The position numbers were made by a program, and so were the translations under genes. A stretch of 64,000 nt of DNA from Rhodocollybia butyracea (Eukaryota > Basidiomycota > Agaricomycetes > Agaricales > Omphalotaceae). Of the stretch, positions 10,790 to 11,860 are shown piece by piece. Every line of letters starts with the position of its first letter. The first letter of the stretch is position 1. The notes under the pieces are model-generated. The model saw only the letters and a list, made by a program, of their open reading frames with translations, did no database searches and was not told the origin of the DNA. Location of the stretch: contig JADNRY010000081.1 in assembly GCA_015501585.1 (NCBI GenBank), positions 172,007 through 236,006 of the forward strand. Reading direction: 5' to 3'.

Positions 10790-11860
10790 ATGATTTTCAC
10801 GACTCTCGCCGCTGCACTCGCTCTCCCTGTTGCTCTCGCTCAGTACGGGGGGCCCCCGCCACCCAGCAGCGGAAGTTCCACTGCTGCGGCTCAAGTTGCG
10901 GTACCTTCAGCCCCAGCAAACACAACCGGGCATATCAACATCGATGTTTCTCCCGGCAGTAAATAGAAGTAGCACCTCGTAAACCTAGAGACTGATTTCA
11001 CAATCTTATTGCAGGCGCGTTTACCTTTTCTGTTCCAGATCTCCAAAATGTTTCAGTCAGTAGCCCTTTGAGTTATGCTGAATTACTCTGATGTCAATCC
11101 TGTAGGTTGGGACGCAAATAACATTCTTCTTCCCACAGTCGTTCGTTGGACTTTCCAAGCACTACTCTAGTCGCTGAAGCTGAAGATGTTTTTCAGATCC
11201 GTTGGTCCTCATTCCGTCACTCAATCGTCCTTCGAAGCGCCGTGCACTTACCTTGAAGCCAACGCGACCACGCAAGCGCCCGCTGGTTTCGATTCGGGTT
11301 TAGTGCAGGCTGTTCAATTCACCATCAATGTTACTAGCACCGATCGTATGTCTTTCGTTACACACTTTTATTCAGTGGCTAAACATTCTTCTTCGCTCTT
11401 TAGCGTATGTTCTTGGTTTTAGGTCTTTCCGTTATCTAAACAAGTTTATTTTCGTAGGATCTGGTACCACTGTAAACAGCTTAACCATTGTGGAATGGGA
11501 ATGGTTGGAGCCATAAATGGTAATGATTTTCCAGCTACTACGGCTGTATGCTCATTTAAGCTATCCTTTTAGCCCCCACAACTGGCCCGAATACTTTTGA
11601 TGCTTTCATGGCAGCTGCGGTGAAACAAAATGGCAATGAGACCCCAGTACGTATAGCTGTTTAGGTATGAGCCTTTACTGATATATGGTTAATTGCAGCA
11701 AACTACTGGTGGTCCAGTCCTTGGAGGATTTGGTGCTAGTGCGATCGCTACCCCTGCGGCCACAGCTACAGCTACTGCTGCTGTAAGCTCAGCGACCATG
11801 AATTTTGCGAGCACGTTTGCCGTTCTGTTTGGTGTAGCAGTCAGCGTGATTTTTGTTTGA
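10790..11860 (+). CDS. Secreted GPI-type cupredoxin, 230 aa
   Basis: Exons 10790-10958, 11015-11055, 11106-11140, 11197-11345, 11404 (one base), 11458-11519, 11573-11646 and 11699-11860; phases agree throughout. Residues 1-17 form a signal peptide (MIFTTLAAALALPVALA), followed by a Gly/Pro/Ser-rich linker and a single cupredoxin domain. Type-1 copper ligands can be placed at His87 (VGPHSVTQ), Cys137, His142 and Met147 (WYHCKQLNHCGMGM). The C-x4-H-x4-M spacing is canonical. The C-terminal 20 residues are hydrophobic after an Ala/Thr-rich stretch, as in GPI-anchor signals. Fungal cupredoxins of this type sit at the cell surface; their substrate is unknown. The copper loop is in frame only if the single C at 11404 is an exon between two introns of 58 and 53 nt. 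Confidence 0.88.
11404..11404 (+). other. Putative one-nucleotide exon of the cupredoxin gene
   Basis: The base C11404 lies between an acceptor (ctctttag, branch-like ggctaaac) and a strong donor (gtatgttc). The second intron has its own branch-like atctaaac and the acceptor ttcgtag. Adding exactly this C joins C11345 and G11458 into a CCG Pro codon and gives PIWYHC, the family motif before the copper cysteine. No single GT-AG intron with plausible signals reaches this frame. Confidence 0.75.

What the first reader, a model, noticed from the sequence alone, without database searches (positions are those of the whole stretch)
11341..11470. One-nucleotide exon in a cupredoxin gene
Seen: two back-to-back introns (11346-11403 and 11405-11457), each with a strong gtatgt donor, a ctaaac-type branch and a tag acceptor, leave exactly one base (C11404) between them. 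That base completes a Pro codon spread over three exons and restores the frame into WYHCKQLNHC, which holds the Cys137/His142/Met147 copper ligands. Known: type-1 copper sites have C-x4-H-x4-M spacing, and fungal relatives have a PIW/F motif before the cysteine. Inference: the spliceosome must define a 1-nt exon or splice recursively, since skipping it destroys the copper site.
Basis: partly seen in the sequence, partly recalled or inferred. Interest (0 to 1): 0.88.

Follow-up and report, generated by a model that had tools for sequence, protein, structure and literature searches.

The report
One-nucleotide exon in mushroom copper gene
A mushroom gene for a small copper protein is cut up so finely that one of its exons is a single DNA letter, which must be spliced in to complete the conserved proline codon just before the copper-binding loop.

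Summary
Observation confirmed, reading supported. The gene (10790-11860, +) splices into 8 exons; exon 5 is the single base C11404 between introns 11346-11403 and 11405-11457. Protein P0001, an uninterrupted 230-aa ORF on public contigs of at most 1,096 nt (taken as transcripts), equals the spliced gene residue for residue. Only one GT-AG solution gives it; no single intron with any splice dinucleotides does. The assembly holds no contiguous copy of the junction, and a second copy of the locus keeps both introns and the C. Among listed NCBI gene models the conserved Pro survives in 0 of 7 from Lentinula and Collybiopsis (Omphalotaceae), 75 of 76 others, and 66 of 67 non-NCBI ORFs. Six of the seven faulty models can be decoded as one base missing here, so the exon is probably shared across that family. 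Read-through ORFs suggest an older phase-1 intron, with a second intron gained one base downstream. Spliceosomal 1-nt exons are known in plants and Fusarium, so this is a new member of a known kind; ten searches listed none from Basidiomycota. Transcript DNA was not seen; splice order is inferred.

The parts
10790..11860 (+). Cupredoxin-like gene, ATG to stop: 8 exons, 693 nt CDS including stop, 230 aa
   Evidence: exact spliced match to P0001
11197..11345 (+). Exon 4 (149 nt); ends with C11345, first base of the Pro132 codon (phase 1)
11346..11403 (+). Intron 4 (58 nt, GTATGT...CTAAAC...TTTAG), phase 1
11404..11404 (+). Exon 5: one nucleotide (C), second base of the Pro132 codon CCG
   Evidence: only exact solution among GT-AG, GC-AG and AT-AC models
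11405..11457 (+). Intron 5 (53 nt, GTATGT...CTAAAC...CGTAG), phase 2
11458..11519 (+). Exon 6 (62 nt); G11458 completes Pro132, then IWYHCKQLNHCGMGMVGAIN with copper ligands C137, H142, M147
10959..11014 (+). Intron 1 (56 nt)
11056..11105 (+). Intron 2 (50 nt)
11141..11196 (+). Intron 3 (56 nt, GTTCGT donor)
11520..11572 (+). Intron 6 (53 nt)
11647..11698 (+). Intron 7 (52 nt)

Best explanation
C11404 is a real, included one-nucleotide exon. Two ordinary short fungal introns, one in phase 1 and one in phase 2 of the same Pro codon, are removed one after the other by intron definition. Once either is out, the other is a normal 53-58 nt intron with full-length exons on both sides. The base supplies the middle C of Pro132 (CCG) and keeps the frame into the type-1 copper loop of a probably secreted, probably GPI-anchored cupredoxin. 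The arrangement is probably shared across Omphalotaceae and most likely arose when a second intron was gained one base downstream of an older phase-1 intron. Shown: the sequence, the unique splicing solution, the matching uninterrupted ORF. Inferred: that this ORF comes from cDNA, the order of removal, conservation (by decoding faulty gene models), the intron gain, secretion and anchoring.
For: P0001: 230-aa ORF, 8 contigs, longest 1,096 nt, sources jgi and lgn; identical to the spliced gene, one GT-AG solution; one solution with GC-AG and AT-AC also allowed, and 0 single-intron solutions with any dinucleotides at 20-200 nt. No contiguous CCGATCTGG.. copy in the 95.6 Mb assembly; the only two hits, each with 2 mismatches, are the genomic exons themselves. 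Second copy on C198 keeps both introns and the C, with one SNP inside intron 4. Pro intact in 0 of 7 Lentinula/Collybiopsis NCBI models, 75 of 76 other NCBI models, 66 of 67 non-NCBI ORFs. P0137 encodes the loop one base out of frame (12 residues jointly encodable) and P0143 likewise (20 residues); 5,000 random windows reached at most 5. The window protein and these models fall in one group, support 90/84.
Against: One of the 7 faulty models (P0005, DDQ-R-IWFHC) is not explained by a single missing base. Tetrapyrgos P0109, outside the group, is also broken for unknown reasons. The P0137 match falls from 12 to 7 residues with one of three loop templates, and P0143 needs Val rather than Ile before the Trp.
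Confidence: 0.93

Rival explanations
1. One 108-nt intron, 11350-11457, using the GTCTTT donor four bases downstream; product TDRM-IWYHC, copper loop kept without the proline.
For: In frame, same acceptor, 231 aa. Two faulty Lentinula models look like this choice (P0009, P0014: DDQRI-IWFHC).
Against: P0001 has TDP, not TDRM; no such product among the 98 hits of the search with the shared N-terminus; Pro is kept in 66 of 67 non-NCBI ORFs; GTCTTT is a poor donor beside GTATGT (general knowledge; no donor statistics were computed).
Confidence: 0.02
2. One 99-nt intron, 11346-11444, using the AAG acceptor; product TDLYFRR-IWYHC.
For: In frame, strong donor, 234 aa.
Against: The acceptor lies directly after intron 5's own CTAAAC box and needs the TAGs at 11403 and 11422 to be passed over (sequence); the product is not P0001 and was not among the 98 hits.
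Confidence: 0.01
3. Assembly artefact: a base was lost or a stretch wrongly inserted, and the true gene has one intron.
For: Single-base indels do occur between the two copies (an extra C in the C198 copy's first coding exon, and three in the upstream flank).
Against: Two contigs agree over 11346-11457 apart from one SNP; a complete second intron with donor, branch box and acceptor cannot come from a one-base indel; models of related species show the same phase conflict.
Confidence: 0.02
4. A stwintron: an internal intron interrupts a splice signal of an external one and no base between them is kept.
For: Known in fungi and also needs consecutive excision (abstract beginnings in the listing).
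Against: The base between the introns is needed for the observed product, and both donors are complete on their own.
Confidence: 0.02

Closest known systems
Fusarium CYP621A one-nucleotide exon (Nelson and Syed 2026, PMC12940212; text parts 1 and 2 of 3 read)
   Same: 1-nt exon supplying the middle base of a codon in a conserved motif, short fungal introns, gene models wrong in nearly all orthologues, RNA reads in support
   Different: Ascomycota, P450 PKG glycine codon, base G; here a basidiomycete cupredoxin, Pro codon, base C
Arabidopsis APC11 single-nucleotide exon (Guo and Liu 2015, PMC4674806; abstract, Results and Discussion read)
   Same: constitutive 1-nt exon restoring frame; sequential intron definition proposed
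   Different: plant, longer introns, shown by altered constructs; no such experiment here
Plant VPS55 and APC11 1-nt microexons (PMC8831610; passages read)
   Same: deeply conserved, missed in annotations
   Different: plants; some VPS55 genes also give a transcript that lacks the microexon through intron retention
Stwintrons (abstract beginnings in search listing)
   Same: two fungal introns back to back needing consecutive splicing
   Different: there an internal intron splits a splice signal of an external one; here the middle base is exonic
Mitochondrial one-nucleotide exons (placozoan cox1, PMC5436844; Ophiostoma mitogenomes, PMC12308204; search listings only)
   Same: exon of one base
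   Different: mitochondrial introns, not spliceosomal (recalled)

Membership tests
Single-nucleotide exon | exactly one base between a complete 3' and a complete 5' splice site | tested here: met
Single-nucleotide exon | the base is in the mature mRNA | tested here: met
   through the protein only: P0001 exact match, unique solution; junction DNA not seen
Single-nucleotide exon | mutating or deleting the base changes the cDNA accordingly (as for APC11) | not testable with these tools
   needs a minigene
Single-nucleotide exon | conserved in orthologues | tested here: inconclusive
   indirect: 0 of 7 Lentinula/Collybiopsis models keep Pro; two of them tested as out-of-frame loop, four decoded by hand, one unexplained; no orthologue genomic DNA apart from read-through ORFs
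Type-1 copper cupredoxin | His...Cys-x4-His-x4-Met ligands | tested here: met
   H87, C137, H142, M147 invariant in 24 sequences
Type-1 copper cupredoxin | cupredoxin fold | tested here: met
   AlphaFold mean pLDDT 80.1; the two Foldseek hits at E<=0.001 are auracyanins 6kol and 1qhq, E 5.8e-4 and 6.5e-4; target-normalised TM only 0.63 and 0.50
Type-1 copper cupredoxin | PF00127 above Pfam cut-off | tested here: not met
   P0001 itself has no Pfam hit at E<=0.01; relatives P0006 and P0005 pass the cut-off. Filed by ligands, fold and relatives instead
Stwintron | internal intron interrupts a splice signal of the external intron, no base kept between | tested here: not met
   C11404 is needed for the observed product

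The most novel reading that the evidence does not exclude
The one-nucleotide exon has been kept since the common ancestor of the window species, Lentinula and Collybiopsis. It was created by gain of a phase-2 intron one base downstream of an ancestral phase-1 intron in the same Pro codon, so members of the family must splice this copper gene in two ordered steps, and the public gene models of it seen here (that of L. edodes, shiitake, included) are wrong at the copper loop.
Probability: 0.68. Interest if true: 0.66.

Novelty: new member of a known kind. Interest (0 to 1): 0.62.

Why it matters
It adds, as far as my ten searches of open papers show, the first spliceosomal 1-nt exon from Basidiomycota, and it suggests how such an exon is born: an intron inserted one base from an older one. 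It also suggests a simple genome-wide test for more: a conserved residue that the gene models of one clade lose while transcript-like ORFs keep it.

Tried and rejected
Similarity of the two introns, to test tandem duplication: core alignment score 19 against shuffled mean 16.5, sd 5.0, 32% of 2,000 shuffles as high; no support for duplication. Paralogues in the genome as intron-position references: in the two-domain cupredoxins read on C761 (L005) and C916 (L014), three of four domains have a phase-0 intron at the Pro of the PIW/PFW/PVW motif or two codons before it, and one has none there (by eye); too distant to polarise the gain. Viral contigs for related DNA: 22 stretches matched a pattern, none was confirmed. 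PDB sequence search with the alignment: 0 hits. Search for skipped or retained isoforms with the skip product as query: 98 hits, none sharing the P0001 N-terminus except P0001 itself; a weak negative, since the database is clustered at 90% and holds only predicted ORFs. Tetrapyrgos as a further case: outside the group, left open. The Q-R-K candidate (CAG|C|GTAAG) in the Lentinula-like read-through P0169 is the only one in its 47-residue tail, but my rough estimate (no call) is that chance gives such a candidate in several per cent of cases, so I do not lean on it.

The contiguous reading of P0017 and P0143 (an intron tail AG|CN before the loop, one intron) is not excluded by those two proteins alone; it is unlikely because a simple correct model would then have been available.

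Full report
WHAT IS THERE. The window lies in a 95.6 Mb, 1,381-contig genome, which I take to be an agaric from the protein relatives below. At 11346-11457 two introns of 58 and 53 nt stand back to back with one base, C11404, between TAG and GTATGT. Both have GTATGT donors, CTAAAC boxes with the last A 20 and 17 nt from the 3' end, and TAG acceptors. The double pattern occurs once in the window and in 0 of 100 shuffles; YAG-N-GTATGT alone occurs twice against 0.68 expected, so the short motif by itself is not special.

RIVAL SPLICINGS. An enumeration of GT/GC..AG models that keep an open frame through WYHCKQ gave many paper solutions. By my judgement of the signals only three deserve weight: the twin introns with the 1-nt exon; a single intron 11350-11457 with a GTCTTT donor (TDRM-IWYHC); a single intron 11346-11444 with an AAG acceptor (TDLYFRR-IWYHC). 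Skipping C11404 gives a 150-aa frameshifted product without the copper loop; retaining either or both introns gives products of 156, 168 and 156 aa.

TRANSCRIPT-LIKE EVIDENCE. Of 262 relatives (120 listed) in the protein search, the best, P0001, is a 230-aa uninterrupted ORF found on 8 contigs, the longest 1,096 nt, from sources labelled jgi and lgn (I take lgn to be Logan, recalled). The gene spans 1,071 nt of genome with seven introns, so contigs this short can hardly carry that ORF uninterrupted unless they are cDNA (inference). P0001 equals the spliced window gene at 230 of 230 residues. Exact spliced matching with GT-AG introns of 40-130 nt yields one solution, with exons of 169, 41, 35, 149, 1, 62, 74 and 162 nt. 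Around the site, allowing GT-AG, GC-AG and AT-AC introns of 20-400 nt and up to three introns, one solution remains; allowing any dinucleotides with a single intron of 20-200 nt, none. Since C11345 and G11458 flank the codon and P0001 has Pro, the middle base must be C (genetic code). No contiguous copy of the junction was found in the assembly: with three mismatches allowed, only the two genomic exons themselves are hit.

SECOND COPY. Contig C198 carries a second copy (probably the other haplotype, inferred) with both introns and the C; between 10790 and 11860 it differs by two intron SNPs (11362, 11551) and one extra C near 10920 that would shift the frame of the first exon, or is an assembly error.

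CONSERVATION. Over the 150 proteins listed, sorted by whether an NCBI source is named, the Pro before [IV]W/Y is intact in 0 of 7 Lentinula and Collybiopsis models, 75 of 76 other NCBI models (exception P0109, Tetrapyrgos) and 66 of 67 non-NCBI ORFs (exception P0141, which has Ala) (Fisher p 1.9e-9, but the rows are related, so this overstates). Families were looked up for six species only: Collybiopsis luxurians and Lentinula aciculospora are Omphalotaceae; the rest of the sorting is by genus name. The seven models fail in six different ways: R (P0005); RI (P0009, P0014); RA (P0010); 15 residues in place of Pro (P0017); an out-of-frame loop and truncation (P0143); an out-of-frame loop (P0137). 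Tested: after DDQ, P0137 reads the loop exon one base out of frame (12 residues jointly encodable with IWFHCKQ[VI]LHCG.., but 7 with an LL template), as if C had been joined straight to the loop exon; P0143 reads the loop exon out of frame over 20 of 20 residues, with Val before the Trp (under 8 with Ile); 5,000 random windows reach at most 5. Decoded by hand (inference): P0009 and P0014 fit CGT-AT|N, a donor shifted by four bases joined to a phase-2 acceptor; P0010 fits CGT-GC|N; P0017 (..YTA-IW) fits ACAG|C| extended upstream. P0005 is not explained. P0169, a 100-aa ORF on a 20,346-nt contig, agrees by eye with L. edodes P0009 from GDIPHSV up to DDQ and then runs on as RMSS, i.e. C|GTATG, placing the first intron's donor at the same base in a Lentinula-like genome. 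P0174 and P0176 from other, unnamed sources run on as NDQE-RM and NDQE-RK, i.e. C|GTATG and C|GTAAG (P0176 ends there, so only two residues speak). So the phase-1 intron looks ancestral and the phase-2 intron gained. In a 36-protein tree the window protein, three jgi relatives (P0002-P0004), P0006 and all seven models form one group (support 90/84), compatible with one origin.

THE PROTEIN. H87, C137, H142 and M147 are invariant in 24 aligned relatives. The predicted fold (mean pLDDT 80.1) best matches auracyanins (E 5.8e-4 and 6.5e-4). P0001 itself misses PF00127, while P0006 and P0005 pass its cut-off. The hydrophobic N-terminus and a C-terminal helix (213-229) suggest a secreted, GPI-anchored protein (inference; no signal or anchor predictor was run); P0066 and P0078 are named GPI-anchored cupredoxin by their source.

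HOW IT WORKS. The 3' site of the first intron and the 5' site of the second are one base apart, so they can hardly be occupied at once (inference). Removing either intron first leaves an ordinary intron. This is the combined intron-definition and sequential model that Guo and Liu propose for APC11 (Discussion read). Which intron goes first is unknown.

WHAT IS KNOWN. Spliceosomal one-nucleotide exons are published for Arabidopsis APC11, plant VPS55 and APC11 and Fusarium CYP621A; the last paper calls itself the first for a fungal gene. Two mitochondrial cases appear in the listings (placozoan cox1, Ophiostoma; not read). My ten literature searches, limited to open PMC papers and to the best-ranked rows shown, listed none from Basidiomycota nuclear genes. 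Hence: new member of a known kind.

Noticed in passing
L007:636-650 (contig C198), against window 10920: The second copy has one extra C in the first coding exon, which would shift its frame: a broken allele or an assembly error.
   Followed up: partly
L007 from about 1688, against window 11968: The two copies stop matching about 108 bases after the stop codon; C198 continues with different sequence, perhaps an insertion or rearrangement in one haplotype.
   Followed up: no
L005 (C761) and L014 (C916): Two-domain cupredoxin paralogues; three of their four domains have a phase-0 intron at, or two codons before, the Pro of the PIW, PFW or PVW motif.
   Followed up: partly
P0109 (Tetrapyrgos nigripes): Gene model outside the Omphalotaceae group lacks the IWFHCKQ part right after DTQ-R: possibly a second, independent case, or another annotation error.
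   Followed up: partly
P0005 (Collybiopsis luxurians): Model reads DDQ-R-IWFHC; unlike the other six it is not explained by one missing base.
   Followed up: partly
P0169 tail (lgn contig of 20,346 nt): Read-through of a Lentinula-like first intron contains Q-R-K, which would fit CAG|C|GTAAG about 80 nt into the intron: a candidate 1-nt exon there.
   Followed up: partly
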